Assembly: GCF_007970465.1 (NCBI RefSeq) | Contig: NZ_CP042429.1 | Coordinates: forward strand, 1,860,001-1,924,000 | DNA: 64,000 bases | Reading direction: 5' to 3' | Source: Corynebacterium nuruki S6-4 | GTDB lineage: Bacteria > Actinomycetota > Actinomycetes > Mycobacteriales > Mycobacteriaceae | Shown: positions 10,122 to 52,869 of the stretch, one piece after another | Layout of the letters: each line of letters begins with the position of its first letter | Numbering within the stretch: position 1 is the first letter of the stretch | Notes under the pieces: generated by a model | What the model was told of the DNA's origin: nothing | The model's input: the letters and a program-made list of their open reading frames with translations, nothing else | Database searches by the model: none | Translations under genes and position numbers: made by a program

Positions 10122-10193
10122 TGTCCGCATCGCGCGACGTGAGGATGGTCGCGAGGGGGTCTGACCATCCTCACGTCGCGCGATGCGCACACC
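10122..10193. repeat. Hairpin repeat family A, copy 1
   Basis: A perfect 24-bp stem (10127-10150 pairs with 10163-10186) around a 12-nt loop GCGAGGGGGTCT; the core is GCATCGCGCGACGTGAGG. The unit, including shared flanks TGTCC and GCACACC, is repeated at 10820-10891 in the same orientation with a single loop mismatch. It begins 11 nt after the FAD oxidoreductase stop. The two copies bracket the RHH/toxin-like pair. Confidence 0.92.
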
Positions 10194-10240
10194 TCGTTCT
10201 CTGCTGCCCCGCACCGGGGGTCTGGCCAAAGCGCATGTTT

Positions 10241-10252
10241 TCGTCATACGAT
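10241..10252 (+). promoter_or_regulatory. Promoter/operator of the toxin-antitoxin-like pair
   Basis: A -10-like TACGAT (10247-10252) lies 6 nt before the ATG at 10259, with no Shine-Dalgarno sequence. It overlaps the small dyad TCGTCATACGA (10241-10251), a position suited to autorepression by the RHH protein. Confidence 0.4.
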
Positions 10253-10258
10253 ATTCCC

Positions 10259-10522
10259 ATGTACGAGAACGAGAAGATCCATGGTCGCCCGGTCACCGAA
10301 GAACAGATCCAGGCCTGGGCGGATGAAGCTGAGGCCGGATACGACGTCGATGCACTGAAGAAGCGAGGTCGTGGTCGTCCCGGGCGGGGAGCGGAGCCGT
10401 CCCAGGTAGTCGCACTGCGGCTCACTCTCGAAGAGATCGCGGCTCTGGACGAGCGGGCCGGACGCGAGGGCAAGACCCGCTCCGAAGTGATCCGGGATGC
10501 CCTGCGCCACTCTGCCGCATGA
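10259..10522 (+). CDS. Ribbon-helix-helix (CopG-type) protein, probable antitoxin
   Basis: An 87-residue protein. The C-terminal half is a ribbon-helix-helix DNA-binding unit: a beta strand VVALRLTLEEIAALDERA followed by the helix KTRSEVIRDALR. The N-terminal half has a conserved opening (IHGRPVTEEQIQAWADEAE) and a basic GRGRPGRG hinge. The next gene starts within its stop codon (ATGA). This two-gene arrangement is typical of type II antitoxin-toxin modules in actinobacteria. The antitoxin role is inferred; binding to its own promoter is likely. Confidence 0.75.
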   Translation: MYENEKIHGRPVTEEQIQAWADEAEAGYDVDALKKRGRGRPGRGAEPSQVVALRLTLEEIAALDERAGREGKTRSEVIRDALRHSAA

Positions 10523-10758
10523 ATGTCCATAAGTCCGCGCTGAAGCACGGTGTCTCCGCCGCGGATTCCATTCAGGCCGCCACATGGCCGTCGTGGGTCG
10601 AGAACCTCGACGATGACAGCCCGTCACGGCAACTACGGCTCGGCTTCGACACCCATGGTCGGATGCTCGAGACCGTGGTCCTCGTCTTCGACAGCGGCAA
10701 TGAGCTGATCATCCACGCGATGAAAGCCAGGCCGCACATGCTCGATCTCCTCCCCTGA
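10519..10758 (+). CDS. Small BrnT-like protein, probable toxin partner
   Basis: A 79-residue protein with the order SALKHGVS, then RQLRLGFDTHGRMLETVVLVF, then ELIIHAMKARP. This is the short beta-rich layout of BrnT/RelE-fold-like partners, where a HAM-x-AR-like C-terminal segment is common. It overlaps the upstream RHH gene by 4 nt (ATGA), so the two are translationally coupled. RNase toxin activity is an inference from family resemblance and context. Confidence 0.66.
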   Translation: MNVHKSALKHGVSAADSIQAATWPSWVENLDDDSPSRQLRLGFDTHGRMLETVVLVFDSGNELIIHAMKARPHMLDLLP

Positions 10759-10819
10759 ACCGTGCCCGTCTGACATCGGTCGGCGTAGTCATCCCTGAGG
10801 CCCGACCCCATCGACATCG

Positions 10820-10891
10820 TGTCCGCATCGCGCGACGTGAGGATGGTCGCGAGGGGGTCCGACCATCCTCACGTCGCGCGATGCGCACACC
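10820..10891. repeat. Hairpin repeat family A, copy 2
   Basis: Direct repeat of 10122-10193: 24-bp perfect stem (10825-10848 with 10861-10884) and loop GCGAGGGGGTCC. Only one loop base differs from copy 1. It lies 61 nt after the toxin-like gene and 42 nt from the end of the convergent aquaporin gene. Confidence 0.92.
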
Positions 10892-10933
10892 GGATCCGGC
10901 GGCGCCCCTCCCTGCGTCCCCACGGTCCTGCTG

Positions 10934-11698
10934 CTACCCCTCGGCGCCGACGCGTGCCTCGGACTCGGCCGGGGTGTCGTCCTCGTCACCGGTGAGGAAG
11001 GCGTAACTGATGCCGGCGATCGCCGCACCGACCAGCGGTGCGAGGATGAACACCCACACCTGGCCGAGGGCGTCCCCGCCGGCGTACCAGGCGACGCCCA
11101 GCGACCGGGCCGGGTTCACCGACGTATTCGACACGGGGATGGAGATCAGGTGGATCAGCGTCAGCGTGAGCCCGATGGCCAGCGGCGCGAACCCGGCGGG
11201 GGCCTTCTTCGACGTCACGCCGAGGATCACCCACAGAAACACGGCGGTGAGCACGACCTCGGCGACGATGACCGCGGTCAGCGAATACCCGTCGGGCGAG
11301 TGCTCCCCGTAGCCGTTTGTGGCGAAGCCGGATCCGGAGGCACTGAACCCGTCCTTGCCGTTCGCGATGATCCAGAGGACGCCACCGGCGACCGCACCGC
11401 CGACGACCTGGGCGATCCAGTAGGGGATGACCGCGGCCCACTCGACCCGCTTCGCGACGGCGCAACCGAGGGTGACGGCCGGGTTGAAGTGTCCGCCGGA
11501 GATGTGGCCGACGGCGTAGGCGCCGGTGACGACAGTGAGGCCGAACGCGAGGGCGACACCGACAAAGCCGATGCCCATGTTGATCGTGCCGTCGGCGACG
11601 ACCTTCGCGGCGAGGACCGCCGAGCCGCAGCCGCCGAAGACGAGCCAGAATGTGCCGAGGAATTCGGCCCAGAGTCGTTTACTCATGGGTATCGCCAT
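10934..11698 (-). CDS. aqpZ: Aquaporin Z-type water channel
   Basis: A 254-residue major intrinsic protein with six membrane helices and both NPA boxes ([11 protein letters not shown] and [10 protein letters not shown], the latter followed by GVAWYAGG). The selectivity-filter context fits the water-specific AqpZ group rather than GlpF. The ATG at 11698 follows AGGAG by 7 nt; the frame open to 11851 has no start signal. It lies between the purine genes and may aid turgor or movement of small neutral solutes such as urea, which is speculative. Confidence 0.9.
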
Positions 11699-11985
11699 GA
11701 TGGTGCTCCTGTGGTGAGAGAAAGGAATGATACATCTGACGATTCGTGATGCTATACGGTTTCCTTCACTCCGATAACTCCCTTTTTTTCTCGCCGGCAC
11801 CGACCGGACCTTCCGAAACACCCCTTTCATATTTCCGGCACCGGACTGCAACGCGTGCCCCGTACCGTGAATCGTGCACAGGCAATCACAACGGCTCAGC
11901 CGGGCTTGGCGAGCGCAGGGCGTCGGGATGACGGAGCGCGGTGCCTCAAGCCGTAGGGGAAACCGTGCAATCCGGAAGGAACATC

Positions 11986-13026
11986 ATGACCCAGACCAGC
12001 GCACCCAACGCCGAACTCGATCTCGAATCCCGCATGGGCGGCATCGGCACCGAGACCACCGACCGCGCCGTCCCCGTCATCGACGTCAACAACTGGGACC
12101 TCACCGACGACCAGTGGGCCGCCAAGGCCGAGGAATTCTGGGACGCCGCCACCACCATCGGCTTCTTCCAGCTGAAGAACTTCGGCATCACCCGCGACGA
12201 GATCGAGGCACAGTTCAGCCAGGCGGAACGGTTCTTCGCCCTGCCGGAGGACATCCTGGCCACCGTGCAGAAGCCGAAGGGGAAGAATGTCGGCTTCGAA
12301 TACCGGACGCAGGTCCGCCCCTCCACCGGCACCCCGGACGAGAAGGAGAGCTACCAGATCACCCGCCCGCTCATGGACGGACTCTGGCTCGACGAGGAGG
12401 CCGTCCCGTCCATCGCCGGTTTCCGGGACGCCTCCCTGGACTTCGAGTCGAAGGCCCACGATGTCGCCATGCGCGTCCTCGAGTTCTTCGCCGTGAAGCT
12501 CGGCTTCGAACGCGACTACTTCACCAAGGTCCACGACCCGGCGTCCCCGGAGCACCAGTGCACGCTGCGGATGATCCACTACATGGCGATGGATGCCGGG
12601 CACAATGTGCCGGACGCCGACGGCCAGCCCATCTGGCGGGCCGGGGCACACACCGACTTCAACCTGCTCACCCTGCTGTTCCAGACCGACGGGCAGTCCG
12701 GCCTGCAGGTCATGCCCGGCGCGGACGCCGGTCAGGACGTCCAGGCGTGGACCCCGGTCCCGGCCTTCACCGACATCCTCACCTGCAATATCGGTGACAT
12801 GCTCATGCGGTGGTCCGATGACCGGCTGAAGTCGAACTTCCACCGGGTGAAGGCCGCCGACACCGGCGTGGACATCCCCGAGCGCTACTCCATGCCCTAC
12901 TTCGCACAGGCCGACCGCAGCGCCGTCATCCAGGGCCCCGAGCACAGGTACGAGCCGATGACCGCGGGCGACTACCTGGACATGCGTATCCGGGCGAACT
13001 TCGGCGCGTCCGAGTCGAAGAAGTAG
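11986..13026 (+). CDS. 2-oxoglutarate/Fe(II) dioxygenase, isopenicillin N synthase family
   Basis: A 346-residue non-haem iron oxygenase. A DIOX_N region is at about residues 25-140 (VPVIDVNNWDL, TTIGFFQLKNFGI). The jelly-roll core carries the iron ligands His222 and Asp224 (GAHTDFNLLTLLFQ) and His286 (SNFHRVK), and the 2-oxoglutarate-binding arginine and serine in ERYSMPYF. The ATG at 11986 follows AAGGA. The 287 nt between it and aqpZ hold the divergent promoters. Next in the same direction is an NCS2 nucleobase permease, so a purine or pyrimidine-like substrate is plausible; the true substrate is unknown. Confidence 0.82.
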   Translation: MTQTSAPNAELDLESRMGGIGTETTDRAVPVIDVNNWDLTDDQWAAKAEEFWDAATTIGFFQLKNFGITRDEIEAQFSQAERFFALPEDILATVQKPKGKNVGFEYRTQVRPSTGTPDEKESYQITRPLMDGLWLDEEAVPSIAGFRDASLDFESKAHDVAMRVLEFFAVKLGFERDYFTKVHDPASPEHQCTLRMIHYMAMDAGHNVPDADGQPIWRAGAHTDFNLLTLLFQTDGQSGLQVMPGADAGQDVQAWTPVPAFTDILTCNIGDMLMRWSDDRLKSNFHRVKAADTGVDIPERYSMPYFAQADRSAVIQGPEHRYEPMTAGDYLDMRIRANFGASESKK

Positions 13027-13073
13027 CCCTCTCCCCTCCCGGCGGGCAGCTGATCCAGCCTGACCCGCAGGTT

Positions 13074-13148
13074 TTTCACACCCTCCCTCCACGGTCGAAA
13101 AGAAAGTGACCAGGTCATTTTTCGGACGCCCCGGCCGGAGGTGTGAAA
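13074..13148. promoter_or_regulatory. Nested inverted repeats upstream of the NCS2 permease
   Basis: Outer arms TTTCACACCCTCC (13074-13086) and GGAGGTGTGAAA (13137-13148) enclose a second, inner dyad with AAAGTGACC and GGTCATTTTTC cores. The AT-rich core stands out from the surrounding GC-rich DNA and ends about 55 nt before the permease start. It could be a two-site operator or a leader hairpin. Confidence 0.45.
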
Positions 13149-13203
13149 TTCCGTCGGCCACCACCCACCCGCTCAAGCATTCCCGAAGCTCAGGAGCATC
13201 CCC

Positions 13204-14670
13204 ATGACCGCCACCCTCCCCCAGGGCACCACCACCGACCGGCAGGACGCCACGACGACCGGCGCCCTCGACAGAACTGACGCAGCTGATGCGTCTGCCC
13301 CCTCCGACGCCTCCTTCTCCACCGACGGATCCGCCGTCGACCGCAACCTCGGTTGGCGCCAGAACCTCGTCTTCGGCGTCCAGCACGTGCTCATGATGTA
13401 CGTCGGCTGCGTGTCCGTGCCGCTCACCATCGGCGCCGCCCTCGGCCTCGACCGGGCGACCGTCGCCATGCTCGTCAACGCCGACCTGCTCGTCGCCGGC
13501 GTGATCACCCTCATCCAGTCCCTCGGCGCCGGCAGACTCGCCGGCGCACGGATGCCCGTCGTCGGCGGCGCGGCGTTCGCCCAGGTCGCCACGATGATCT
13601 CCATCGGGCACACCTACGGACTGCCCGCCATCTGGGGCTGCATGCTCGCCGGCGGGGTGATCGGACTGGCGCTGGCCTGGCCGTTCAGCCGCCTGCTGCG
13701 GTTCTTCCCGCCGCTGGTCACCGGGTCGGTGCTGCTGGTGCTGGGAATCTCGCTGATCGGTGTGCCCGGCGGTCTGATCCTCGGCGAGGAGGGCACCGCC
13801 GGCTACGCCCGCCCGCTGTACATCGGCATCGCCGCGGTCGTGGTCGTCATCGCCTTCGGACTCAGCGCCCTGGCCCGCGGCATGGTCGCCAAGGCGTCCC
13901 TGCTGATCGCCGCGGTCGTCGGCGTCCTGCTGTGCTGGCCCGCCGGCCTGCTGGACTTCTCCGGTGTCGGCGATGAACCCCTCTTCGCCATGGTCACACC
14001 CCTCCACTTCGGCCACCCCGAGTTCCCCGTCGTCGGCGTGATCTCGATGACCGTGGTGATGATGTTCCTGTTCTCCGAGACGATCGCGAGCGTCGGCGCG
14101 CTCTCCGAGATCACCGGCAAGAAACTGTCCCGCGCCGACGTGGCCCGCACCCTGTCCGGGGACGCCCTCTCCGGCGTCCTCGGCGGCATCTTCAACGGCT
14201 TCTACGACACGGTCTTCACCCAGAACGTCGGTGCGATCAAGACCACCCGCGTCCACTCCCGTTTCGTCACCGCCACCTCCGGTGTGATCCTGCTGCTCAT
14301 GGGGCTGATGCCTGTGACCGGTGCGGTGATCGCCGCGCTGCCCGACCCGGTGGTCGGCGGGGTGTCGATCATGCTGTTCACCTCGATCGCCTCGGTGGGT
14401 GTCGCCACGCTGCGTAAGGCGGATCTCGGGGACACGGTGAACTCGCTGATCCTGTCGGCCGCCGTGGCCCTCGGCCTGCTCTCCGAGTTCGCCGACGACA
14501 TCTGGTCGAAGTTCCCGGACTGGGCGCAGACGCTGCTGTCCGACGGCGTGGTGCTCGCCGCACTGTCCGCGTTCTTCCTCAACCTGCTGTTCAACCACAC
14601 CCGGATCGCGGCGAAGGCCCGCGCTTCGCGGCATGAGGAGATGCCGGAGACCGAGTCCATGTTCGCCTGA
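13204..14670 (+). CDS. NCS2 family uracil/xanthine permease
   Basis: A 488-residue membrane symporter of the nucleobase-cation symporter-2 family. After a 45-residue hydrophilic N-terminus it shows FGVQHVLMMYVG in the first helix, the FSETIASVGALSE helix that holds the substrate-binding glutamate, and the family signature QNVGAIKTTRVHSRFV. The ATG follows AGGAGCAT. It pairs with the upstream 2-oxoglutarate oxygenase gene. Uptake of a purine or pyrimidine base is expected; specificity within NCS2 cannot be fixed from sequence alone. Confidence 0.88.
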   Translation: MTATLPQGTTTDRQDATTTGALDRTDAADASAPSDASFSTDGSAVDRNLGWRQNLVFGVQHVLMMYVGCVSVPLTIGAALGLDRATVAMLVNADLLVAGVITLIQSLGAGRLAGARMPVVGGAAFAQVATMISIGHTYGLPAIWGCMLAGGVIGLALAWPFSRLLRFFPPLVTGSVLLVLGISLIGVPGGLILGEEGTAGYARPLYIGIAAVVVVIAFGLSALARGMVAKASLLIAAVVGVLLCWPAGLLDFSGVGDEPLFAMVTPLHFGHPEFPVVGVISMTVVMMFLFSETIASVGALSEITGKKLSRADVARTLSGDALSGVLGGIFNGFYDTVFTQNVGAIKTTRVHSRFVTATSGVILLLMGLMPVTGAVIAALPDPVVGGVSIMLFTSIASVGVATLRKADLGDTVNSLILSAAVALGLLSEFADDIWSKFPDWAQTLLSDGVVLAALSAFFLNLLFNHTRIAAKARASRHEEMPETESMFA

Positions 14671-14714
14671 GGGCGGGGCCGGATCACCGAGGCGGCTCAC
14701 CGAGGCCGCGCCGA

Positions 14715-14788
14715 CCTGTCGGCATCGCGCGACGTGGGGATGGTCAGACCCCTCCGCGACCATCCTCATGTCGCGCGATGCCGACAGG
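14715..14788. repeat. Hairpin repeat family A, copy 3 (solo, inverted)
   Basis: A 31-bp stem (14715-14745 with 14758-14788) with two G.T wobbles, around a 12-nt loop AGACCCCTCCGC. The loop is close to the reverse complement of the loop of copies 1 and 2, so this copy is inverted. It lies 45 nt after the permease stop. Confidence 0.88.
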
Positions 14789-14894
14789 CCCCGTAAAACC
14801 CTGCAAGAGGAACGACCCGAGGAATCATCGATGTTCTACTGACATGCCCCGGAGCGCGGGCGTACGACCGTCGGCCCGTCACAGGATCAACCAT

Positions 14895-16142
14895 TCAGTG
14901 GCTCTGCCGGTACGCGACCGCGTTCTCCTTCCACACGACTGCGGCGTCGTCGAAGTCGGGGATAGAGTCCACATCAGGTCCACCCGCCCGATAGTGCTCA
15001 ATCATGGCAGTGTTGGCCCCCTCACCCGTCCGGGCGCCACGACTGATCATGATGCCCTCATACCTGCTGATCGCACCGTCCAGGGTGCTGCCTGAGCGGA
15101 CAGCCGTGATAATGGCCTGCGCGAGCTCAGCGGCGTCGAGGAGAGCAAGGTTCACGCCGTTGCCGCCGAACGGTGCCATGACATGTGCCGCATCCACCAA
15201 CAGCGTGATCCCCGGCCGGTGCTGCCAGGTCATCGGGGTGGGCAGAGCGAATACCGGCCTGTTCGGCAGAGCACCTTCGCTCTCGGTGATGATCGTGCGC
15301 AGTTCAGGAGAGAAATCCGCGAACCGCTCACCGAGCAGGGCACGTACACCCTCGGTATCAGTGGTCACTGTACCGTTCGCGTCAAGAAGCCGCCCTCTGC
15401 CGTCGGACTGCCCCAGCCCAGCTTCAGCAAGCCAGTCCAGGCTGGTGCGTACGGCGATGTAGCCTCGGATCACGTCCTGACTGTTGCGTTGCAACACCAG
15501 ATTCTTTCCGTCGCCGTTGGCCCACATATGCCCGTCCCCCACCAGCTGAGCGATCAGGGGATGCCGGGTCCGCGCCGCCGTAAACAGCGCCTCGACCATG
15601 GAAACGCCCAGATAACGTGGCTGTTCCGATGTGAGAGCTCTGCGGACCCTGGACCATGCGCCGTCGGCACCGATCACGAGAGCCGCCTGCACGGAGGAAC
15701 CGTCGGTGAAGACTACGGCACTGTCCCGCACCTCCTCCACACGGTGACCCCAGCGAACGGTACCCGGTTCCAGGGAATCGACCAGCATCTGACGCAACTG
15801 AGTCCGGTCGATCTCCGGGGCCGCGTCCTCACCGGTCATCGGGACCTGGTCGCGCAGAACTGTTCCGTCCGGGGCAAGCAGCCGGTGCGCCTGACTCTCG
15901 GGACGGGCCAGCTCGGCGAAACGTGAGGACAGTCCGGCGGCCTCGATGGCGATCTGCCCACTGTCCGCATGGATGTCCAAGGTGCCGCCCTGTTCACGGG
16001 CATCAACAGCAGCGTCGCTGTCGTAGACCTCCACCGGGATCCCCGCCTGCTGCAGGATCCTTGCGGCCATGAGCCCTCCGGGCCCGGCACCCACAATCAC
16101 GATCCGCCGGTTCCGCACTCCCTGGTTGGTCGTGTCAGTCAT
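14895..16142 (-). CDS. FAD-dependent monooxygenase, TetX-like (PHBH fold)
   Basis: A 415-residue group A flavin monooxygenase. The N-terminus has VIVGAGPGGLMAARIL, then GGTLDIHADSGQIAIEAAGL as in TetX-like enzymes. The middle DG motif is GADGAWSRVR and the C-terminal FAD motif is LVDAAHVMAPFGGNGVNLALLDA. It hydroxylates an unknown aromatic or polyketide-like substrate; resistance by drug inactivation is possible but unproven. It is divergent from a TetR gene that is split by an insertion sequence, so its repression is probably lost. Confidence 0.84.
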   Translation of the reverse strand: MTDTTNQGVRNRRIVIVGAGPGGLMAARILQQAGIPVEVYDSDAAVDAREQGGTLDIHADSGQIAIEAAGLSSRFAELARPESQAHRLLAPDGTVLRDQVPMTGEDAAPEIDRTQLRQMLVDSLEPGTVRWGHRVEEVRDSAVVFTDGSSVQAALVIGADGAWSRVRRALTSEQPRYLGVSMVEALFTAARTRHPLIAQLVGDGHMWANGDGKNLVLQRNSQDVIRGYIAVRTSLDWLAEAGLGQSDGRGRLLDANGTVTTDTEGVRALLGERFADFSPELRTIITESEGALPNRPVFALPTPMTWQHRPGITLLVDAAHVMAPFGGNGVNLALLDAAELAQAIITAVRSGSTLDGAISRYEGIMISRGARTGEGANTAMIEHYRAGGPDVDSIPDFDDAAVVWKENAVAYRQSH

Positions 16143-16166
16143 GATGCTCTCCCTTCATGTTCGAAC

Positions 16167-16212
16167 CGGCCGGCCGGTCGGTTGAGGTCCATACTCCCGA
16201 CCGTGCGGTCGG
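16167..16212. promoter_or_regulatory. Putative TetR operators between monooxygenase and tetR
   Basis: CCGACCG-TG-CGGTCGG (16197-16212) is an inverted repeat with 7-bp arms. A second half-site, CCGGTCGGTTG, lies at 16175-16185 and matches the right side of the first (GCGGTCGGTTG). The spacing fits two TetR dimers controlling the divergent monooxygenase. Confidence 0.55.
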
Positions 16213-16697
16213 TTGTCAACTACTGTGTGTCTATGACCTCCACAAAGAAAAACGGCGCGCACATGAGAGAGACCATCCTTCAGACAGCAATCGAGCTGTT
16301 CACCCAGCGCGGGTATGACGCCACGTCGCTGCGGAACATCGCCGAAGCCGTCGGGCTGACGAAGTCCTCGCTGTACCACCACTTCCCACGCAAGGAAGCG
16401 ATCGTCGAAGCAGTCATGGCGGGACAGAAGCAGGAGATCGATGACCTGCTGGACTGGATCGACCAGCAGCCGGACGACGGGGACCTTCTCCTGTCCGCCG
16501 CACTGCACTGGGTCGACACCACCGGTCCCCGACGCCTTGTCGGCATGCGTTTCGCACGCGCGAACCAACCTCTCATGCACAGGCTCCGGCACGAGGGCAA
16601 TGACCGTTCGGAATGGTTCACCCCTGTTCTTGAGCGGGTACTTCCCGGCACTCCGACATCATCCGAGATCCTCCTCGGACGAATGACATTCGACACC

Positions 16698-18157: not shown

Positions 18158-18418
18158 TCGACACCATCGGAGCCGCCCTGGCTGCCGCCGACGGCCTGGA
18201 CGTGACCGACCAGGAAATCCTGGACGCGGCGCATGCGTCCACCGTCTGCCTGGCTGCGTGTCTGCGCTCCGGGGGGCGCACTCCAGATCATCAGGGCAAC
18301 CCCGCACCAGCTGACCAGGGCCGTCCCGAGAAAAGTAGACCTCAGCACGTCGACGGAGGAACTGCGACCACCGTCTGAGGACCGTGGCGGCGCCTACGGT
18401 TCCCTGCTCCCGGGGTGT

Positions 18419-21347: not shown

Positions 21348-21415
21348 GGGTTCACCGTACCGGTCGGTCTGCCCCGCCGCCGACGGTGGTCCGGGCCACA
21401 GGTGCGGTCCGGGGA

Positions 21416-21511
21416 TCATTCCCCCGGCAGGTACGGTTCCAGGACCCTGAGGCAGTAGTCCCGGACCTTCTTCTCGTTGACGCGCTCCCGGCCCTTCGGC
21501 CCGAACTGACG
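21416..21511 (-). pseudogene. C-terminal remnant of an unrecognised gene
   Basis: On the minus strand, about 31 codons with almost every third base G or C read FGPKGRERVNEKKVRD...LEPYLPGE and end in TGA. No start is nearby and the coding signal ends near 21511, where a plus-strand remnant begins. This looks like the tail of a deleted gene. I do not recognise the family. Confidence 0.4.
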
Positions 21512-29269: not shown

Positions 29270-29286
29270 CGCGCATCTGACAGAAG

Positions 29287-29362
29287 GACGGTTGGCGGCC
29301 TGACGAAACGACGGTTAGAAACGAGGCAGGACGACGGTTAAAGGTCTGGCGAAACGACGGTT
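29287..29362. repeat. Four GACGGTT units at exact 23-bp spacing
   Basis: GACGGTT starts at 29287, 29310, 29333 and 29356. Units 2 and 4 are preceded by CGAAAC and unit 3 by GCAGGAC. The rest of each unit is degenerate. The tract fills the gap between the PucR gene and the convergent TetR gene; the rest of that gap (29363-29503) shows nothing. Confidence 0.7.
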
Positions 29363-29503
29363 ACGCATCTCAAGTGCAGCTCATGACGGACGCATACCTA
29401 CAGCGGCACATTGACCGAACTGGACGGCCTGTTCCCGGATGCTCCCACGGTCATGCAAGGCGTCCGCATCAGCGGTGCCTGAGAGCCGCTGGGCGCACCG
29501 CCC

Positions 29504-41283: not shown

Positions 41284-41311
41284 TCACGTCCGTATCCTGC
41301 TACGCTCGCAT

Positions 41312-41398: not shown

Positions 41399-41492
41399 GT
41401 CCGGGCATGTCCGGGCGTACCCGTGCACACCGGTGCACGTCAGCACATGCCGGCCCGAGGGTCCTTACCGCTTGTGACCGAAAGGCATGAGC

Positions 41493-43501: not shown

Positions 43502-43513
43502 CCCGCACCGGGG

Positions 43514-43585
43514 ATGTCGGCATCGCGCGACGCCAGGATGGTCGGGGGACCTCGCCACCGACCTCACGTCGCGCGATGCGGACAT
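43514..43585. repeat. Hairpin repeat family A, copy 4 (solo, degenerate)
   Basis: Arms starting ATGTCGGCATCGCGCGACG (left, 43514) and, reading inward on the other strand from 43585, ATGTCCGCATCGCGCGACGT. The inner stem and loop have drifted. It begins 13 nt after the monooxygenase stop. The rest of the gap to 43802 shows no other feature apart from a ribosome binding site. Confidence 0.8.
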
Positions 43586-43802
43586 GCCCCGGGCGTCCAC
43601 CACGGCCGTGCCGGGCTCCGCCGGCGGACGCAGCACCGAAACCCCGCCGAAACACCGGCACCGTAGCCTCTGACCTGTCACGCGGTGCACGACCGCTGCC
43701 GGGCCCGTTGACGGGCACTTCCGGCACAAGAGAGCATTCCTGCACACCGCCGACCGACCGTCGCCCGACGGCCGGTTCCCCGGTCTGACCAGGAGGTCCC
43801 CC

Positions 43803-45206: not shown

Positions 45207-45234
45207 CCGCGGGCCACCGCCTACCCTGTAACCC

Positions 45235-46287: not shown

Positions 46288-46350
46288 GCCGCGGAACGGG
46301 CGAGCCGCTCCCCTCCGCGCGTCCGCGCGTCCACGCGTCCGCTCCTCGCC

Positions 46351-46411
46351 AAGTTAGTCCGGGGAGAGGTCACTCCGGAGGCCGGATCGTGACCTCTCCC
46401 CGGACTAACTT
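46351..46411. repeat. Hairpin repeat family B, copy 1
   Basis: A 61-nt element: perfect 23-bp stem (46351-46373 with 46389-46411) beginning AAGTTAGTCCGGGGAGAGG, and a 15-nt loop TCCGGAGGCCGGATC. It is identical at every base, loop included, to 47743-47803 in the same orientation. The pair brackets the DUF559 gene. Confidence 0.95.
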
Positions 46412-46549
46412 CCGGGCGTCCGGGTTATCCACAGGCGCACCCCGCAGCCGGCCGACAGTTGTCCACAGAATCCGCACCCCTCTACCGTTGCGCGCCGTTT
46501 TCCGCTTCACTGGACAGTGCACACCACGGGGGACTACGGAGGAGGGGCC

Positions 46550-47749
46550 GTGGAACACGACGGAACGGGATACGACAGCACACCCGAAGCACCGGATGAG
46601 GGAGGGGACGACCGGCAGGACCAGCGTCGCCGGGCATTCAGGCAGAAGAAGCGCCGACGGCGCGCGTGGCTGTCGCAGGCGGAACGCGACGGCCGTATCC
46701 CCGCCGGTCGCGGGCTCGAACACTCCCGGCGCGTCTATCCGCGTCCGGCCCCGGTCAGACGCACCACGCTCACCGGACAGGGGCTCACGCGGACCCGGAT
46801 CAGCCGGTTGTTCCGGCCGCTCACCAAAGGGGTGGTCGTCGCCGTCGAGCAGGAGGACATGCCGGAGGAGTTCCGCGTGACCCCGGAGGACTGCGACGGC
46901 TTCCATGCCGACATCGTCACCCGGGCGCGGGCCCACTGGCTGCTGAACATGCTGACGGTGATCGGGTACTGGGCCGCGCTCGCCTACCACGGTGTGCCCT
47001 ACTGGTGCGACGGAGCTCCCGTCGTCCTGCTGACATCCGGGTCCCCACGCGGTGAGGCCAGATCCTGGCTGGCCAGGCTGACTCCGACGGTGCCGGTGTT
47101 CCGTCGGTTCCGGTCGGGGACGCCGACGGTGTGCCCGGATCCGGAATTCCCCCGAATGAAGGTGGTCACGGCCCCCGTCGCTGCGGCCCAGTGCCTGAAG
47201 TCACTGCTGCGCGGCACGTTCGGGTGGACGGTGCCCGGAAATGTCCCCGGTCTCACTGTCCGGGAGGTCCGTGCCGTCCAACTGTTGGACGCCGTCTACC
47301 AATGCACCTACCTCACCGCGGCGGCCGTCCGTGAGGGTGCCCGACGACTCGTCGACCGGGAGGTGCTGGACCGGCTGCTGGCGCTGGCGGACACCGGCGC
47401 CCAGTCCCCGCGGGAGACTCTCCTCCGGCTCTACGTGCGGGACGCCCTGCCGCCGGGTTTCCACTGGACATCCCAGGTCACTGTCCGCCTCGACCCGGAC
47501 GGGCGGCCGTGGAAACACCTCATCGCCGACCTGGCCTGCGAGGAGTTGAAGATCGCGCTGTTCTACGACGGTTCGTACCACCGTGCCGAGGAGCGGCGCA
47601 GTATCGACTTCTCCCAGGTGCAGCAGCTCCGGGCCCTCGGGTGGGAGGCGGTGCGGGTCGATGCGGCGCTGATGCGCGATGTGGCGGAGATGATGGAGCA
47701 GGTCACTGCGTCGATCGCTCGTGCGCGCGACGGCGGGTCCGGAAGTTAG
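46550..47749 (+). CDS. DUF559 (Vsr-like PD-(D/E)XK fold) protein with AbiEi-like N-terminal region
   Basis: A 399-residue protein. A highly basic leader (RRRAFRQKKRRRRAW) is followed by a winged-helix/AbiEi-like region of about 200 residues (LTRTRISRLFRPLTKGVVVAV). The C-terminal 100 or so residues match the DUF559 nuclease fold in order: SPRETLLRLYVRD, DLACEELKIALFYDGSYH and LRALGWEAVRVD. The first acidic positions are kept, but the usual Glu of VEYDG is Phe here, so catalysis may be impaired. The GTG at 46550 sits just after GGAGGAGGGG; a GTG at 46517 is also in frame. Hairpin B copies lie on both sides and the downstream one contains its TAG stop. Confidence 0.75.
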   Translation: MEHDGTGYDSTPEAPDEGGDDRQDQRRRAFRQKKRRRRAWLSQAERDGRIPAGRGLEHSRRVYPRPAPVRRTTLTGQGLTRTRISRLFRPLTKGVVVAVEQEDMPEEFRVTPEDCDGFHADIVTRARAHWLLNMLTVIGYWAALAYHGVPYWCDGAPVVLLTSGSPRGEARSWLARLTPTVPVFRRFRSGTPTVCPDPEFPRMKVVTAPVAAAQCLKSLLRGTFGWTVPGNVPGLTVREVRAVQLLDAVYQCTYLTAAAVREGARRLVDREVLDRLLALADTGAQSPRETLLRLYVRDALPPGFHWTSQVTVRLDPDGRPWKHLIADLACEELKIALFYDGSYHRAEERRSIDFSQVQQLRALGWEAVRVDAALMRDVAEMMEQVTASIARARDGGSGS

Positions 47750-47803
47750 TCCGGGGAGAGGTCACTCCGGAGGCCGGATCGTGACCTCTCCCCGGACTAA
47801 CTT
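47743..47803. repeat. Hairpin repeat family B, copy 2
   Basis: Identical 61-nt direct repeat of 46351-46411. Its left arm contains the stop codon of the DUF559 gene (TAG at 47747-47749), so the last codons read into the repeat. It ends 43 nt from the convergent uraH stop. Confidence 0.95.
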
Positions 47804-47845
47804 TGGGGCGCGGTCGGGCGCGGTCGGGCGGGCCGGGCTTTTCGC

Positions 47846-48214
47846 TCAGCTGCCGCGGTAGGTGGAGTAACCGAACGGGTTGAGCAGCAGCGGGATGTGC
47901 AGGTGCCGCGGGGCGTCCGGGTGGTCCGCCGGATCGTCGACGGTGAAGGTCACGTCGACCCACGGGTACAGGGTCTCCCGCCCCTGCGCCGCCAGGTGGT
48001 CGCCGGTGAGGAAGCGTAGCCGGTACGTCCCGGGCTCCGGGTCGGTGACGAAGCGGTAGCGCCCGTCGGCGTCCGTGGTGGCGGATTCGAGCACCTCGGT
48101 CCCGGCGGTCACCTCCGCTCCGGTCTTGTGCACCGTCAGTGCGACCAGTTCGACCTGGAGGCCTTCCGCGGGGCGTCCGGTGGTGGTGTCGAGGCAGTGG
48201 GTGGACAGGCTCAT
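47846..48214 (-). CDS. uraH: 5-hydroxyisourate hydrolase (transthyretin-like)
   Basis: Converts 5-hydroxyisourate to OHCU. At 122 residues it has the normal length. The family motifs are present: LSTHCLDTTTGRPA at the start (catalytic His), DGRYRFVTD in the middle, HLHIPLLLNPFGYSTYRGS at the end, with the signature C-terminal YRGS. It is the last gene of the permease-guaD-uraD-uraH operon, 30 nt after uraD. Confidence 0.95.
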   Translation of the reverse strand: MSLSTHCLDTTTGRPAEGLQVELVALTVHKTGAEVTAGTEVLESATTDADGRYRFVTDPEPGTYRLRFLTGDHLAAQGRETLYPWVDVTFTVDDPADHPDAPRHLHIPLLLNPFGYSTYRGS

Positions 48215-48244
48215 GGTTCTACTCTTCTCTGTTCTTCTCTCCGG

Positions 48245-48760
48245 TTACCCGGTGATCCAGCCGCGCAGGCGCAGCTGGTTGATGGCGTCCAGGTTGGCGA
48301 CGGTGACGGGCCATTCGTCGGCCGGCGCGTTGTCCAGCCGGGCGAGCAGGTCGTCACGGATCTCCCGGGCGGAGCGCCCGGCCGCGCGGACCAGGTAGTT
48401 CCAGCCGAACTGTTCCCGGTAGCGGGGCTGCAGGTCCCGCAGGGCGTCGAGCTCGGCGTCCCCGGTCGCGCCGAGCGCCGCCGCCTGCTCGCTGGCCGAC
48501 CGGGTGCCGGCGGCGACCGTCCCGCCGATCGGGGGGTGGGCGTTGACCGCGTCGCACACGGTCCGCCGACTCTCCCGGTCCTGCGCGGTGAGCAGGGCGG
48601 ACGCCGTGGCGCACAGCTGGTCGACACTGTCGTACGGGCGGGACGCCGCCACCGATTCCGCCAGTGCGGGGCTGCCGAACAGGTCCGCGAGGTCCGTGGT
48701 CAACCGGTCGACGGGGGCGGCGTTGAAGTCCGCGAGAGTGAAGGCCATGGTCCCCATTAT
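48245..48760 (-). CDS. uraD: OHCU decarboxylase
   Basis: Decarboxylates OHCU to S-allantoin. The 171-residue protein has FTLADFNAAPVDRL at the start, the catalytic His in AHPPIGG and the SASEQAA segment conserved in UraD, then YREQFGWNYLVRAAGRS. The start at 48760 overlaps the guanine deaminase stop (TAATG), so translation is coupled; an ATG at 48751 is also possible. Confidence 0.94.
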   Translation of the reverse strand: MMGTMAFTLADFNAAPVDRLTTDLADLFGSPALAESVAASRPYDSVDQLCATASALLTAQDRESRRTVCDAVNAHPPIGGTVAAGTRSASEQAAALGATGDAELDALRDLQPRYREQFGWNYLVRAAGRSAREIRDDLLARLDNAPADEWPVTVANLDAINQLRLRGWITG

Positions 48761-50049
48761 GCGGCCCTGTCGACGGTGTCGCCTGCGACGGCGACGGCAC
48801 TGACCGCCCGGTCGTCGCCGAGGATCATCAGCGCGAACAGGAGCTCCGCGGTGGTGGTGCACTGCTCGGCGCGTTGCTCGAGCACGGGTGAGGAGGCCGG
48901 GTCGAGAACGACGAGATCGGCGTCCTTGCCCACCTCGAGGCTGCCGACCGAGTCCGCCACGCCCAGTGCCTCCGCACCGCCGAGGGTGGACAGCCGCAGC
49001 AGTTCGGCGACGGACAACGGGGAGCCGAGCAGCCGGGAGACCTTGTAGGCCTCCCCCGCGGTGGTCAGCGGTGACAGCGAGGTGCCGGCGCCGACATCGG
49101 AGCCGAGGCCGATGCGCAGGTCGTCACCACCGGCGAAGGCGGTGTCGTGCAGCGGGAACAGTCCGGAGCCGAGGAAACTGTTGGACGTCGGGCAGTGTGC
49201 GAGGGAGGCGTGCGCCTCGGCGAGGCGTCCGGTCTCCCGGTCGGAGAGGTGGACGGCGTGGCCGAAGACCGCACGACGGCGGACGAGTCCGGCGGCATCG
49301 TAGACGTCGGTGTAGTCGGCGGCGTCCGGGAAGAGTTCGGCGACCCACCGGCACTCGCCGAGGTTCTCCGCGAGGTGCGTCTGGATGACGACGTCGGGGT
49401 GGGCGGCGGCGAGTTCGCCGAGGGCACGCAGCTGGGCGTCCGAGGAGGTCGGGGCGAACCGCGGGGAGACCGCGTATTCGAGGCGCCCCACCCCGTGCCA
49501 GCGTTCCAGCAGGTCGAGACTGTCGGCGACGGCACTGTCGGGGGTGTCGAGCAGCTCGTCGGGGGCGTTGCGGTCCATGCAGGTCTTGCCGGTGATGATC
49601 CGGAGGTTGCGGTCGTGGGCGGCGCGGAACAGGGCGTCCGCACTGCCCTTGTGCACGGTGGAGAACACGCAGGCGGTCGTCACACCGTGGGCGATGAGCT
49701 GGTCGGTGAACAGGCGGGCGCGGGTCTGCGCCCATGCCTCGTCGGCGAACCGTGCCTCGGCGGGGAAGGTGTAGCGGTCGAGCCAGTCGAGCAGTTCCTC
49801 ACCGGGTGAGGCGATCATGCCGAGCTGCGGGTAATGGACGTGGCAGTCGACGAAGCCGGGGACGATGAGACGGTCGCCGTGGTCGGCGACAGTGGCGTCC
49901 GGGTAGGCCTTGCGCAGGTCGGACGCCTTCCCCACCGCCTCCACGGTGCCGTCGGAGCGGTCGACGACGACACCCCCGCCGGGCAGGTCGAGGAGGTCGT
50001 CCACCCCGGTGAGCGGGGTGACGACATGGCCGGTGTGCAGGGTGTACAT
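48757..50049 (-). CDS. guaD: Guanine deaminase
   Basis: Deaminates guanine to xanthine. The 430-residue amidohydrolase has the zinc motif VDCHVHYPQ, the substrate Arg/Phe segment RLEYAVSPRFAPTSS, QTHLAEN, FGHAVHLSD and the metal Asp in GSDVGAGTSLS. These match bacterial GuaD more closely than other ATZ/TRZ enzymes. The ATG at 50049 lies 5 nt after GGAG; the frame open to 50238 overlaps the permease 3' end and is rejected. Confidence 0.93.
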   Translation of the reverse strand: MYTLHTGHVVTPLTGVDDLLDLPGGGVVVDRSDGTVEAVGKASDLRKAYPDATVADHGDRLIVPGFVDCHVHYPQLGMIASPGEELLDWLDRYTFPAEARFADEAWAQTRARLFTDQLIAHGVTTACVFSTVHKGSADALFRAAHDRNLRIITGKTCMDRNAPDELLDTPDSAVADSLDLLERWHGVGRLEYAVSPRFAPTSSDAQLRALGELAAAHPDVVIQTHLAENLGECRWVAELFPDAADYTDVYDAAGLVRRRAVFGHAVHLSDRETGRLAEAHASLAHCPTSNSFLGSGLFPLHDTAFAGGDDLRIGLGSDVGAGTSLSPLTTAGEAYKVSRLLGSPLSVAELLRLSTLGGAEALGVADSVGSLEVGKDADLVVLDPASSPVLEQRAEQCTTTAELLFALMILGDDRAVSAVAVAGDTVDRAA

Positions 50050-50098
50050 CACAGCTCCAGTATGGGGGCTCGGCGGGGTCGGGGGTGGACATTCCGGA

Positions 50099-51634
50099 TC
50101 ATCTGCTGCCCTCCGCCGCCCGGATCTCCGCGGCCCGCACCTGCGCGTCACGTGCCTCCGCCACGGCGATGCGGGCCTCCGCCGCCTTGCGCTCGGCCCA
50201 CGCCGCAGCACGTTCGGAGTTGTTGAGGACCACCTCATAGGATTCCGAGTCCCCGGTCGGACCCAGTTTCTCCGACGGCTCCTTCCCCGCCGGTGCCGGG
50301 GCGAGGTGCCCGCCGTCCTGCCGGTTGAGCAGCAGGTTCAGCACGATGACGACGACGGCACCGGCGGAGATGCCGGAATCCAGGATCATGCCGAGTTCAT
50401 CGGGCAGCTTCCCGTACAGTCCGGGCTGCACGCTGGGCAGCATCGCCACGGCAACGGACACGCCGACGATGAGGGCACGGGTCTCATTCCACGCGACCGT
50501 GGACAGCGTCCTGATTCCGGACGCCGTGACCATGCCGAACAGTGCCACTCCCGCACCACCGAGGACGGGGGCCGGGATGCCGGTGACGACCGCACCCATC
50601 TTCGGCAGCAGGCCGAGCAGCACCAGGATCACACCGGCGGCGGTGACGACGTAGCGTGAGGCGATGCGGGACAGGGACACCAGCCCGACGTTCTGGGCGA
50701 AAGCCGTGTAGGGGAACGTGTTGAAGATGCCGCCGAGGACGGTGGACAGGCCGTCGGCACGCAGGCCGTCCGACAGGGTCTTCCCGTCGACGGGTTTCTT
50801 CACGACATCGCCGATCGCGATGATGTCGCCGGTGGTCTCGGTCATGATGACCAGACCGACGAGCACCATCGTCAGGATCGAGGCGATCTCGAACGTGGGG
50901 GCGCCGAACTGGAACGGGGTGGGCACCCCGACCCACTCCGCCGGGCCGACCTGCGACCAGTCGGTCGCGCCGAGGAACTGGCCGACGACGGTGCCGACAA
51001 TGATGCCGCCGAGCACGGCGAGTGACCGGAACGCCGGCGGGGCGAAGCGGTGGATGAGGATCACCACGACCAGGGCGATGATGGCGAGGATGAAGTTCTG
51101 CGTGGTGCCCTGGTCGGACTCGGCCGCGGAACTGTTGAACACCCAGCCGGAGGCGACGGACAGCAGTGACAGGCCGACGACCGTGATGATGGTTCCGGTG
51201 ACCAGGGGCGGGAAGTAGCGGACGATCTTCGCGAACAGTGGGGCGACGAGGATCATCACCACACCGGTGACGATCACCGAGCCGTAGATCGCCGTCACGC
51301 CGTGTTCCGAGCCGATGGAGATCATCGGGGCGACGGCGACGAAACTCACCCCCTGCATGAGCGGCAGTTTCGCGCCGAACCGCCACAGGCCGACGGACTG
51401 GACCACCGAGGCGATGCCGGCGACGAACAGGTCGGCGACGACGAGGTGGTGCAGGTCCCCGGCATTGAACTGGCCGGCCTGGATCAGGGCGCCGCCGACG
51501 ATCAGGGGGACGGCGACCGCCCCCGCGTACATCGCCAGCACGTGCTGGAGACCCAGGATGATCAGCCGGCCCAGTGGTGGTCGCTGATCGACCGGATGCG
51601 GCAGGTCCGGGGTGTCGTGGGAGGAAACGGTCAT
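50099..51634 (-). CDS. NCS2 family xanthine/urate permease
   Basis: A 511-residue nucleobase symporter with LGLQHVLAMYAGAVAVPLIVGGAL in helix 1, the helix-8 motif MTETTGDIIAIG and the family signature QNVGLVSLSRIASRYV. The GDI-type helix 8 and QNVGLVS fit the purine (xanthine/uric acid) branch rather than the uracil branch, and it differs from the permease at 13204. The last 60 residues are a charged, Ala-rich helix (AAAWAERKAAEARIAVAEARDA) that could form a coiled coil, unusual for the family. It heads the operon with guaD, uraD and uraH. Confidence 0.9.
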   Translation of the reverse strand: MTVSSHDTPDLPHPVDQRPPLGRLIILGLQHVLAMYAGAVAVPLIVGGALIQAGQFNAGDLHHLVVADLFVAGIASVVQSVGLWRFGAKLPLMQGVSFVAVAPMISIGSEHGVTAIYGSVIVTGVVMILVAPLFAKIVRYFPPLVTGTIITVVGLSLLSVASGWVFNSSAAESDQGTTQNFILAIIALVVVILIHRFAPPAFRSLAVLGGIIVGTVVGQFLGATDWSQVGPAEWVGVPTPFQFGAPTFEIASILTMVLVGLVIMTETTGDIIAIGDVVKKPVDGKTLSDGLRADGLSTVLGGIFNTFPYTAFAQNVGLVSLSRIASRYVVTAAGVILVLLGLLPKMGAVVTGIPAPVLGGAGVALFGMVTASGIRTLSTVAWNETRALIVGVSVAVAMLPSVQPGLYGKLPDELGMILDSGISAGAVVVIVLNLLLNRQDGGHLAPAPAGKEPSEKLGPTGDSESYEVVLNNSERAAAWAERKAAEARIAVAEARDAQVRAAEIRAAEGSR

Positions 51635-51726
51635 GCCGGACAGTGTTCCTGTCGGGTGTTACAGCGCGGTGACACCTGTGTTGCGGCGTCCGGTAACGGT
51701 CACCAAGTGCGGCGTCCGGCGTCTCC

Positions 51727-51788
51727 GAACTGACCCGGATCGGACAGGATCGTCGGGGAATTCCGGCAGATCCGGGTCAGCTCGCGTC
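51727..51788. repeat. Hairpin repeat family C, copy 1
   Basis: A 62-nt unit with 12-bp perfect arms CTGACCCGGATC (51730-51741) and GATCCGGGTCAG (51769-51780), a 27-nt interior and the tail CTCGCGTC. It is 42 nt before the AbiEi-DUF559 start. It matches 52808-52869 in length and orientation, with 51 of 62 bases identical and the differences almost all in the interior. Confidence 0.9.
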
Positions 51789-51830
51789 ACCGCACGGTAC
51801 GGTGGCCCCACACAACGGGGTGGGGGAACC

Positions 51831-52751
51831 ATGGACGGCAACAGACGCATCTGGACGACGGCGGACCTGCGCGCGGCGGGACTGGACCGGGGAAAGGTGT
51901 CCGCAGCGGTGGAGCAGAAGAAACTCCACGTGATCAGACGGGGACTCTACGTCACGGACGACGACGCGCACCTGATACTCCAGGCGCTGGCCCGGGGATA
52001 CCCGGGCATCACCTTCACCGGACGCACCGCCGCGTTCCTCTACCGGGCGCTCCCGATGACGTGGCCGGCGACGGCGGAACACCCGACCAACCGGCACCGT
52101 GACCACCTCATCGACATCCGCCGACGGGTGGGCCGGCCCACCAGGCAGGTCGGCTGGACGACCGTCGCCGCCCCGGTGCTGGTCGCCCTCGACCTCCCGG
52201 AACCGGACGCCGTGCGCGTCCTGGAGAACGGCTACGCCGGATTCACGGGCTCGCGCCGGCTCGAGGAGGACCTGGCGCAGTTGTCGCGGCGGGAGCGGAC
52301 GCTGCTGGAGCCGGTGCTGCGCACAGTGGTTCTGGGTACGGCGAGCCAGCTGGAGCAGACGGCGGTGACCGCCATCAGGAAGGCGCTGGCGGCGGAGGTG
52401 GACGCGGGGACGGTCACCGTCGAGACGAACAAGCTGTTCCGGGGGTACTGGTTCGACGTGATGATCCGGGAGGCACGCGTCCTCGTCGAGATCGACAGTT
52501 ACGCCTTCCACGGTGAGGGGAAGGCCAGGAAGTCCGCCTTCGTCAGGGACCGGCACAAGGGCAATCAGGTGACCAGGTGGGGATGGTTACTGCTGCGCTA
52601 TCCGGATCATGCGGTGAAGAACCTGCCGGAGTACGTGGGGGCGGAGGTGGCGGACACCGTCCGGTTCACGCTGGCACACGACCGGGGACGCCGCGGGGAC
52701 GAGGCGCTCGACACGGACCGGCCGGTGCAGGAATGGTATCCGGAGGTGTGA
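51831..52751 (+). CDS. AbiEi-like winged-helix plus DUF559 nuclease-fold protein
   Basis: A 306-residue protein. The N-terminal 60 residues are an AbiEi-type winged helix (IWTTADLRAAGLDRGKVSAAVEQKKLHVIRRGLYV). The middle resembles the AbiEi/transcriptional regulator core (ITFTGRTAAFLYRALPM). The C-terminal 100 residues are DUF559: SQLEQTAVTAIRKALAA, then FDVMIREARVLVEIDSYAFH, then RDRHKGNQVTRWGWLLLRY. The acidic positions, including VEIDS, are kept, so it could be an active endonuclease. No AbiEii nucleotidyltransferase toxin gene is adjacent. The ATG follows GGGGGAA. Hairpin C copies bracket the gene. Confidence 0.78.
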   Translation: MDGNRRIWTTADLRAAGLDRGKVSAAVEQKKLHVIRRGLYVTDDDAHLILQALARGYPGITFTGRTAAFLYRALPMTWPATAEHPTNRHRDHLIDIRRRVGRPTRQVGWTTVAAPVLVALDLPEPDAVRVLENGYAGFTGSRRLEEDLAQLSRRERTLLEPVLRTVVLGTASQLEQTAVTAIRKALAAEVDAGTVTVETNKLFRGYWFDVMIREARVLVEIDSYAFHGEGKARKSAFVRDRHKGNQVTRWGWLLLRYPDHAVKNLPEYVGAEVADTVRFTLAHDRGRRGDEALDTDRPVQEWYPEV

Positions 52752-52800
52752 CGGGTCAGGGTGACCCGGGGCGTCCCGGAATGACCCGGGATGTCCCGGG
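52752..52800. terminator. Short hairpins after the AbiEi-DUF559 gene
   Basis: CGGGTCA-GGG-TGACCCG (52752-52768) begins directly after the stop codon, and CCCGGG-ATGT-CCCGGG (52785-52800) follows. Both are built from the TGACCCGG word of hairpin family C, so they may be degenerate C fragments as well as terminators. Confidence 0.5.
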
Positions 52801-52807
52801 TTGTCCC

Positions 52808-52869
52808 GAGCTGACCCGGATCGGGCGGATTCGCCGGACGAAACCGGCAGATCCGGGTCAGCTCGCGTC
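52808..52869. repeat. Hairpin repeat family C, copy 2
   Basis: Perfect 15-bp arms GAGCTGACCCGGATC (52808-52822) and GATCCGGGTCAGCTC (52850-52864) with a 27-nt interior and tail GCGTC. It contains the stop codon (TGA, 52858-52860) of the convergent M20 hydrolase gene. Confidence 0.92.

What the first reader, a model, noticed from the sequence alone, without database searches (positions are those of the whole stretch)
10122..52869. Three unrelated hairpin families, each a direct-repeat pair bracketing one small accessory module
Family A (72 nt, one mismatch) flanks a RHH/toxin-like pair, family B (61 nt, identical) flanks a DUF559 gene, and family C (62 nt, 51 matches) flanks an AbiEi-DUF559 gene. 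The architecture is the same each time: a long palindrome, a 42-140 nt leader, the module, 0-61 nt, then the same palindrome in the same orientation. The arms differ completely between families, so this is not one repeat. It recalls REP sequences around RAYT transposases, but with Vsr-like nuclease-fold or TA proteins. Inference: the palindromes are substrates or mobility ends of the enclosed modules, a cassette type I do not know to be described.
Basis: partly seen in the sequence, partly recalled or inferred. Interest (0 to 1): 0.88.

Follow-up and report, generated by a model that had tools for sequence, protein, structure and literature searches.

The report
Nuclease genes bracketed by matching palindromes
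In many actinobacteria, genes for a little-studied nuclease family sit between two long matching DNA palindromes that change together from species to species and sometimes have copies elsewhere in the genome, which points to a nuclease-and-palindrome partnership that I did not find described.

Summary
Family A is not the end sequence of a toxin-antitoxin cassette: it has 26 copies in the 3.17-Mb genome, including eight pairs around unrelated genes, one of them a DUF559 gene. Family C has at least 32 copies; family B only its pair.

The DUF559 link is strong and broad. Matching palindromes flank 10 of 11 DUF559 genes found in this genome (two borderline), 25 of 38 other Corynebacterium loci, 25 of 37 mostly mycobacterial loci, 17 of 29 further loci of the order, and 5 of 7 plasmid-collection loci, including Arthrobacter. 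Shifted controls: 2 of 309. In 33 of 56 cases the downstream palindrome covers the stop codon.

Syntenic orthologues keep gene and neighbours, yet the two palindromes of a locus match each other better than those of diverged orthologues (51 of 55 pairs): they turn over together.

Best explanation: a REPtron-like system with an unrelated enzyme. An AbiEi/DUF559 nuclease recognises its own palindromes, keeps them matched and sometimes seeds copies. RAYT/IS200 transposases were not found in six Corynebacterium genomes. Recognition, cutting and copying are inferred. Ten searches of one open-access library found no description.

The parts
10122..10193 (.). family A palindrome, upstream copy (29-nt arms, 1 mismatch)
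10259..10522 (+). RHH (CopG-like) protein gene, 87 aa
   Evidence: PF01402 E 4e-8
10519..10758 (+). small BrnT-like (weak) protein gene, 79 aa, overlapping the RHH stop
   Evidence: PF04365 E 0.025, below cut-off
10820..10891 (.). family A palindrome, downstream copy
14713..14790 (.). family A palindrome, solitary, near a called gene 3' end
43508..43591 (.). family A palindrome, solitary, near a called gene 3' end
46347..46415 (.). family B palindrome, upstream
46517..47749 (+). B-type DUF559 nuclease gene (longest frame; true start may lie further in)
   Evidence: PF04480 21.9 bits over cut-off 20.6; B-type alignment homologous to the AbiEi-DUF559 alignment over 275 columns
47737..47809 (.). 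family B palindrome, downstream; its 5' arm contains the stop codon of the DUF559 gene
51726..51784 (.). family C palindrome, upstream
51831..52751 (+). AbiEi-DUF559 nuclease gene, 306 aa
   Evidence: AbiEi_4 E 4e-4 and DUF559 E 2e-3 (both below Pfam cut-off); PADLOC AbiEi E 2e-9
52805..52867 (.). family C palindrome, downstream
60080..60111 (.). possible partial family C copy (32 nt, 88%, E 1e-4)
   Evidence: row G000:C1:1920080-1920111

Best explanation
Each DUF559 nuclease gene (AbiEi-like DNA-binding part plus a Vsr-like nuclease domain) and the two palindromes tightly around it form one functional unit. The gene itself does not move; it is inherited in place. The palindromes are the nuclease's cognate DNA sites. 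The nuclease nicks or breaks them, and repair from the other bracket copy keeps the two alike while their sequence drifts fast. Some families also seed copies between other genes (A 26 places, C at least 32, the C. variabile counterpart 7), much as TnpA-REP (RAYT) is thought to spread REP sequences. Pairs around unrelated genes, such as the RHH/BrnT-like pair in this window, are non-autonomous products of such spread or of local copying.

Shown here: the bracket association, its breadth, the fixed position of syntenic orthologues, the joint turnover, dispersed copies for four of five families searched, and no RAYT-type gene found in six Corynebacterium genomes. Inferred: recognition, cleavage, copying by repair, and that the nuclease rather than something else disperses the palindromes.
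For: Bracket association (score 22 or more): 10 of 11 own-genome DUF559 genes; 25 of 38 Corynebacterium-set loci and 25 of 37 loci from mycobacteria and relatives, the latter first run as presumed controls; 18 of 30 order-level loci, or 17 of 29 without the own-genome one; 5 of 7 plasmid-collection loci including three Arthrobacter. Controls: shifted positions 1 of 128 and 1 of 181; unrelated upstream/downstream combinations 4 of 300 and 3 of 300. By synteny, 37 of 49 groups have a bracketed member. The downstream palindrome covers the stop codon in 33 of 56.

Joint turnover: 55 syntenic pairs with protein identity under 75% show within-locus similarity 0.53, orthologous sides 0.26, null mean 0.14; both within-values exceed between in 51 of 55. 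Arms match better than loops, 0.83 vs 0.74, in 43 of 58 pairs. No G-U bias on the gene strand (59 GT vs 65 AC, P 0.65), as expected for DNA rather than RNA structure.

Dispersal. Three copies of a composite repeat carrying C palindromes. Hairpin density (arms of 22 nt or more) 2.5-4.0 per 100 kb in three genomes with B-type genes, 0.5 in G028, 1 in 400 kb over ten other Corynebacterium genomes. No PF01797 match in six Corynebacterium genomes.

Nuclease fold: MTES_1575 in 18 and DUF559 in 14 of 20 members; PDB similarity only weak: endonuclease-like protein E 0.006, mobile-intron protein E 0.45 among chance-level hits.
Against: No enzyme activity is shown. Family B has no dispersed copy and the L222 family only two besides its pair, so dispersal is not general. 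Palindrome similarity does not track protein similarity between non-syntenic loci (Spearman -0.04, P 0.44; Mantel over 15 groups r 0.18, P 0.05). Between 29% and 41% of loci in each collected set lack a detectable pair, and 12 of 49 synteny groups have none. In the own genome two of the ten positives (L161 score 23, L078 score 24) lie at the edge of the null, and one (L061) was found by looking between family-A hairpins. Two B orthologues (L165, L166) have the upstream palindrome beyond a neighbouring gene and fail the automatic test. Loci entering the turnover test were mostly chosen for having a matching pair, and the 55 pairs share loci, so they are not independent. Only 5 of 16 C places held were within 60 nt of a called gene 3' end, so a 3'-end preference is seen for A only. 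The Mycobacterium genome G350 does hold four Y1 transposase matches.
Confidence: 0.58

Rival explanations
1. Mobile cassette: the two palindromes are the transposition ends of the enclosed module and the unit moves as a whole.
For: Units are compact and the palindrome often covers the stop codon (33 of 56). The A and B modules are absent together with both palindromes at the matching sites of G028. Family-A pairs around cargo resemble each other more than other copies: 0.86 vs 0.60, partner ranked first in 12 of 16, and all seven non-DUF559 pairs are direct. A repeat of about 340-380 bp carrying a C palindrome near each end is present in at least three copies.
Against: Syntenic DUF559 orthologues keep their neighbours across diverged species while both palindromes change. 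Orientation is mixed around DUF559 genes. The B protein had no plasmid match. In G003/G030 the bracket also includes a neighbouring gene.
Confidence: 0.12
2. Operators: the AbiEi-like part binds the palindromes to control its own gene, and dispersed copies are a regulon; no cutting or copying takes place.
For: AbiEi antitoxins bind inverted repeats at their promoters (recalled, not looked up). AbiEi similarity of the N-terminal part. One palindrome lies just upstream of the gene.
Against: A second, matching palindrome lies at the gene's end. Most dispersed A copies lie near called gene 3' ends (19 of 26). Arms of about 20 nt and lengths of roughly 50-75 nt exceed a usual operator (general knowledge). 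C palindromes also form part of a composite repeat.
Confidence: 0.17
3. Ordinary terminators or inert REP-like repeats, with pair matching caused only by general gene conversion between neighbours.
For: 19 of 26 A copies lie within 60 nt of a called gene 3' end. Neighbouring repeats are expected to convert each other (general knowledge).
Against: Strong enrichment around one nuclease family over controls. No run of T follows the six window stems (read). Density goes with presence of B-type genes in the few genomes sampled.
Confidence: 0.1

Closest known systems
REPtron: TnpA-REP (RAYT) with REP/BIME sequences
   Same: A usually single-copy, non-mobile nuclease gene next to palindromes with cognate copies dispersed through the genome (introduction passage of PMC8266576).
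   Different: Enzyme is DUF559/AbiEi, not a Y1 HUH protein; palindromes are roughly 50-75 nt with long arms and no GTAG foot (2 of 112 hairpins); the two-sided bracket turns over jointly.
IS200/IS605 elements
   Same: Gene tightly enclosed by two hairpin ends (general knowledge).
   Different: No Y1 transposase match in six Corynebacterium genomes; syntenic genes stay in place.
AbiE type IV toxin-antitoxin (AbiEi)
   Same: N-terminal AbiEi similarity.
   Different: A nuclease domain is fused on, and palindromes lie on both sides; whether an AbiEii partner lies nearby was not checked.
Vsr-like homing endonucleases (mobile intron protein 3r3p)
   Same: Weak profile similarity of the nuclease domain (E 0.45); kinship otherwise recalled.
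   Different: No intron or disrupted target gene seen; the flanks are palindromes.

Membership tests
RAYT/REPtron | HUH Y1 transposase (PF01797) | tested here: not met
   no match in G000, G003, G030, G028, G024 (an incomplete draft) and G351 (C. variabile); four matches in Mycobacterium G350
RAYT/REPtron | GTAG tetranucleotide at the hairpin foot | tested here: not met
   2 of 112 hairpins
RAYT/REPtron | dispersed extragenic cognate copies | tested here: inconclusive
   A 26 places, C at least 32, L181 family 7; L222 family 2 besides its pair; B none
RAYT/REPtron | non-mobile, vertically inherited gene | tested here: met
   syntenic orthologues across species
Self-mobile hairpin-ended cassette | same unit at different genomic places | tested here: inconclusive
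   none seen among the DUF559 loci compared; family-A pairs do occur around different genes
Self-mobile hairpin-ended cassette | clean empty sites | tested here: inconclusive
   G028 lacks module and both palindromes at A and B, but at 71-87% flank identity no junction can be read
DUF559/MTES_1575 nuclease | profile match | tested here: met
   B over Pfam cut-off; MTES_1575 in 18 and DUF559 in 14 of 20 A4 members at E 0.01; C itself below cut-off
AbiE toxin-antitoxin | adjacent AbiEii toxin gene | not tested
   neighbours were not scanned for AbiEii
DUF559 nuclease | cleavage of the palindrome | not testable with these tools
   needs protein

The most novel reading that the evidence does not exclude
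A widespread actinobacterial system in which a resident nuclease continually rewrites the two palindromes around its own gene, and in some hosts spreads them through the genome, so that each species carries a private palindrome code. This would be an independent invention of the REPtron principle by a Vsr/homing-type nuclease, possibly serving to mark self DNA or to keep the gene from being lost.
Probability: 0.3. Interest if true: 0.95.

Novelty: new variant of a known kind. Interest (0 to 1): 0.85.

Why it matters
DUF559 is still a family of unknown function in Pfam, and 109 of 200 genomes of this order matched the AbiEi-DUF559 alignment. A cognate palindrome on each side gives a directly testable substrate and would explain part of the long intergenic hairpins in these genomes. 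If the nuclease drives the turnover, it is a second, unrelated enzyme family doing what TnpA-REP is thought to do, and it offers a clean comparative system (same gene, same place, new palindromes) for how a nuclease and its DNA site co-evolve.

Tried and rejected
Toxin-antitoxin cassette owning family A: rejected, because other A pairs hold unrelated genes. RAYT-driven REPs: rejected for the six Corynebacterium genomes searched. RNA-level structure: no G-U excess. Mycobacterial DUF559 loci as negative controls: they turned out positive. Hairpin-protein tracking across non-syntenic loci: not found. Insertion junctions from G003 against G030 (92% identical around the B locus): one palindrome present/absent site was seen, too little to define a target. 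Empty sites in G028 show neither palindrome, which does not separate insertion from loss. Plasmids and phages: 7 plasmid records and 2 weak phage hits for a mycobacterial member, no plasmid match for B (B was not searched in phages). AlphaFold models could not be made: the machine was busy on all 12 tries.

A mistake mended: loci returned by the genome search keep the contig's orientation, but treated the 30 loci L244-L273 as if all matches were on the plus strand, and misplaced one region of L326. repeat these with the right strands and places and are the ones cited; what I still cite (the 181 shifted controls, the family-A pairs and columns) does not touch those loci. The earlier order-level count was 14 of 30 and is now 18 of 30.

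Literature: ten searches, seen as listings only. Passages seen by term search in PMC2267715, PMC3733652 (one reference-list hit) and PMC8266576; no paper was read whole.
Full report
WHAT IS THERE. The three pairs exist as described. The window lies at 1860001-1924000 of a one-contig 3.17-Mb genome; the genus Corynebacterium is inferred from the named relatives. Two further family-A hairpins lie in the window.

FAMILY A IS GENOME-WIDE. One search with the A hairpin gave 52 rows that reduce to 26 places. Eight adjacent pairs lie under 1.6 kb apart, where random placement gives 0.33 (maximum 4 in 5000 draws). They enclose a B-type DUF559 gene (L061), a small MauE/DoxX-like protein (MauE below cut-off), an SDR, an MFS transporter, a HicAB-like pair, an LppP/LprE lipoprotein, a DUF6985 protein and, in the window, the RHH/BrnT-like pair (HicAB and DoxX are my readings from sequence, without Pfam support). 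Within pairs the similarity is 0.86 against 0.60 for other combinations, and the bracket partner is the best match in 12 of 16 cases. Arms are conserved (0.92 and 0.90 per column), the loop is not (0.59). By a rough gene call, 19 of 26 A copies lie within 60 nt of a gene 3' end and two were called inside a gene. So the RHH/BrnT-like module is one cargo among several.

FAMILIES B AND C. B has only its two copies. C has 62 rows, 32 places, some weak, from 40 of 54 candidates scored. Of 16 C places held as loci, 5 lie within 60 nt of a called 3' end. Three regions with two C places each (151114-151459, 922242-922574, 1459986-1460357) are copies of one repeat of about 340-380 bp, 91-93% identical over the aligned part, with a C palindrome near each end and another palindrome between. 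A fourth close pair (2498840/2499130) was not read.

THE DUF559 LINK. Own genome: 11 DUF559 genes were found; more divergent ones may exist. A palindrome on one side with a matching stretch on the other (score 22 or more) is present for 10. L161 (23) and L078 (24) are at the edge of the null; the other eight score 30-64. The miss, L077, has one hairpin. L061 was found by looking between A hairpins, so without it the count is 9 of 10.

Public genomes: the scan with alignment A1 kept 79 named loci out of 309 stretches that encoded a relative. I scored 75: 38 of the 39 Corynebacterium loci (L197, truncated, dropped) and 37 of the 40 others (L215, L219, L225 dropped as short). Scores of 22 or more: 25 of 38 and 25 of 37; unrelated upstream/downstream combinations 4 of 300; shifted positions in the Corynebacterium loci 1 of 128 and in the others 1 of 181. 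In the order-level search 109 of 200 genomes had a match; of the 30 loci returned, the best ones and one per genome, 18 score 22 or more, 17 of 29 without the own-genome locus L244; null 3 of 300. Seven plasmid-collection records matched a mycobacterial member; 5 of 7 have clear pairs, Tsukamurella 2 of 3 and Arthrobacter 3 of 3, Nonomuraea 0 of 1 (gene-specific windows, no control of their own). Many loci are orthologues: 105 loci fall into 49 synteny groups, 37 with at least one positive member.

ANATOMY. Over the 68 positive loci the median arm is 20 nt and the median loop 19 nt; orientation is 37 direct, 20 inverted, 11 ambiguous; arm identity between the two palindromes is 0.83 and loop identity 0.74, arms higher in 43 of 58 pairs (P 1e-5). 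The downstream palindrome covers the stop codon in 33 of 56 measurable cases (all). The B-type and AbiEi-DUF559 alignments are homologous over 275 columns (hhalign probability 99.8), and the B-type set keeps E, D, YDG and H positions with similar ones in the mycobacterial set.

STATIONARY GENE, CHANGING PALINDROMES. Flank comparison shows that orthologous DUF559 genes stay put: L061 corresponds to C. variabile L181, Candidatus C. avicola L177 and Candidatus C. faecigallinarum L182; window B to C. glyciniphilum L165 and CNJ-954 L166; L077 to L174, L179, L180, L185 and L187. For 55 syntenic pairs with proteins under 75% identical, the two palindromes of one locus resemble each other (0.53) more than same-side palindromes of orthologues do (0.26; unrelated mean 0.14, 95th percentile 0.22); both within-values exceed the between-value in 51 of 55. 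Above about 85% protein identity orthologous sides mostly remain alike. The 57 loci were mostly selected for a matching pair (50; seven set by hand) and the pairs share loci, so this is a pattern and not a count of events. In C. variabile the palindrome of the gene orthologous to L061 has its own seven places, while a family-A search of 151 genomes, an even draw from the genus with at most six candidates scored in each, found only weak hits outside this genome, in G024 and G028.

DENSITY. Hairpins with arms of 22 nt or more: 2.5 per 100 kb in the own-genome sample, 3.9 in G003, 4.0 in G030, against 0.5 in G028 and 1 in 400 kb over ten other genomes. With arms of 18 or more: 3.5, 5.0, 4.0, 1.2, and 4 in 400 kb. 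G028 stretches were chosen by place, the ten genomes were mostly lower in GC (0.54-0.70), and their lack of B-type genes is judged only from a DNA search without a substantial match and from the stretches themselves. So this is a correlation in few genomes.

MECHANISM. Mismatches in the stems show no wobble bias (59 G-T, 65 A-C), so selection or copying seems to act on DNA. RAYT-type transposases were not found where tested in Corynebacterium, and the GTAG foot is missing (2 of 112 hairpins). Arms are better matched than loops, as expected if a protein or the stem itself is what matters. The simplest account is that the nuclease acts on its own palindromes and repair keeps them alike; in some genomes copies spread. 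None of these steps has been observed. The order of events is also open: bracket palindromes could be rewritten from each other or from dispersed copies.

KNOWN OR NOT. Fourteen papers in the held library name DUF559 and four MTES_1575; I saw only listings, and by title and abstract start none concerns bracketing palindromes. The combined search DUF559 + palindrom found two unrelated papers. The library lacks most subscription papers, so this is no proof of novelty. The corrected counts did not change my odds.

Noticed in passing
own genome 151114-151459 (L332), 922242-922574 (L323), 1459986-1460357 (L326): A repeat of about 340-380 bp, 91-93% identical in three copies, with a C-type palindrome near each end and a third palindrome inside; looks MITE-like.
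   Followed up: partly
L018 10425-11730: An SDR gene enclosed by an inverted pair of the palindrome family found beside DUF559 gene L077.
   Followed up: partly
L075 2806-3921: AbiEi-DUF559 paralogue interrupted by an in-frame TAG that still has matching palindromes (score 30).
   Followed up: partly
window 29281-29363: Three direct repeats of about 23 nt period (ACGACGGTTA core), iteron-like.
   Followed up: no
L187 5146-6030 compared with L180: A gene-sized insert directly after the downstream palindrome in C. kalidii, absent from a related MAG.
   Followed up: partly
L281 9872-9946 (G003) compared with L284 (G030): A palindrome present in one species and absent in a close one, at a place that is itself a small palindrome.
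   Followed up: partly
L375 18249-18314 and L379 15513-15586: Long hairpins in genomes where no DUF559 gene was found in the fetched stretches.
   Followed up: partly
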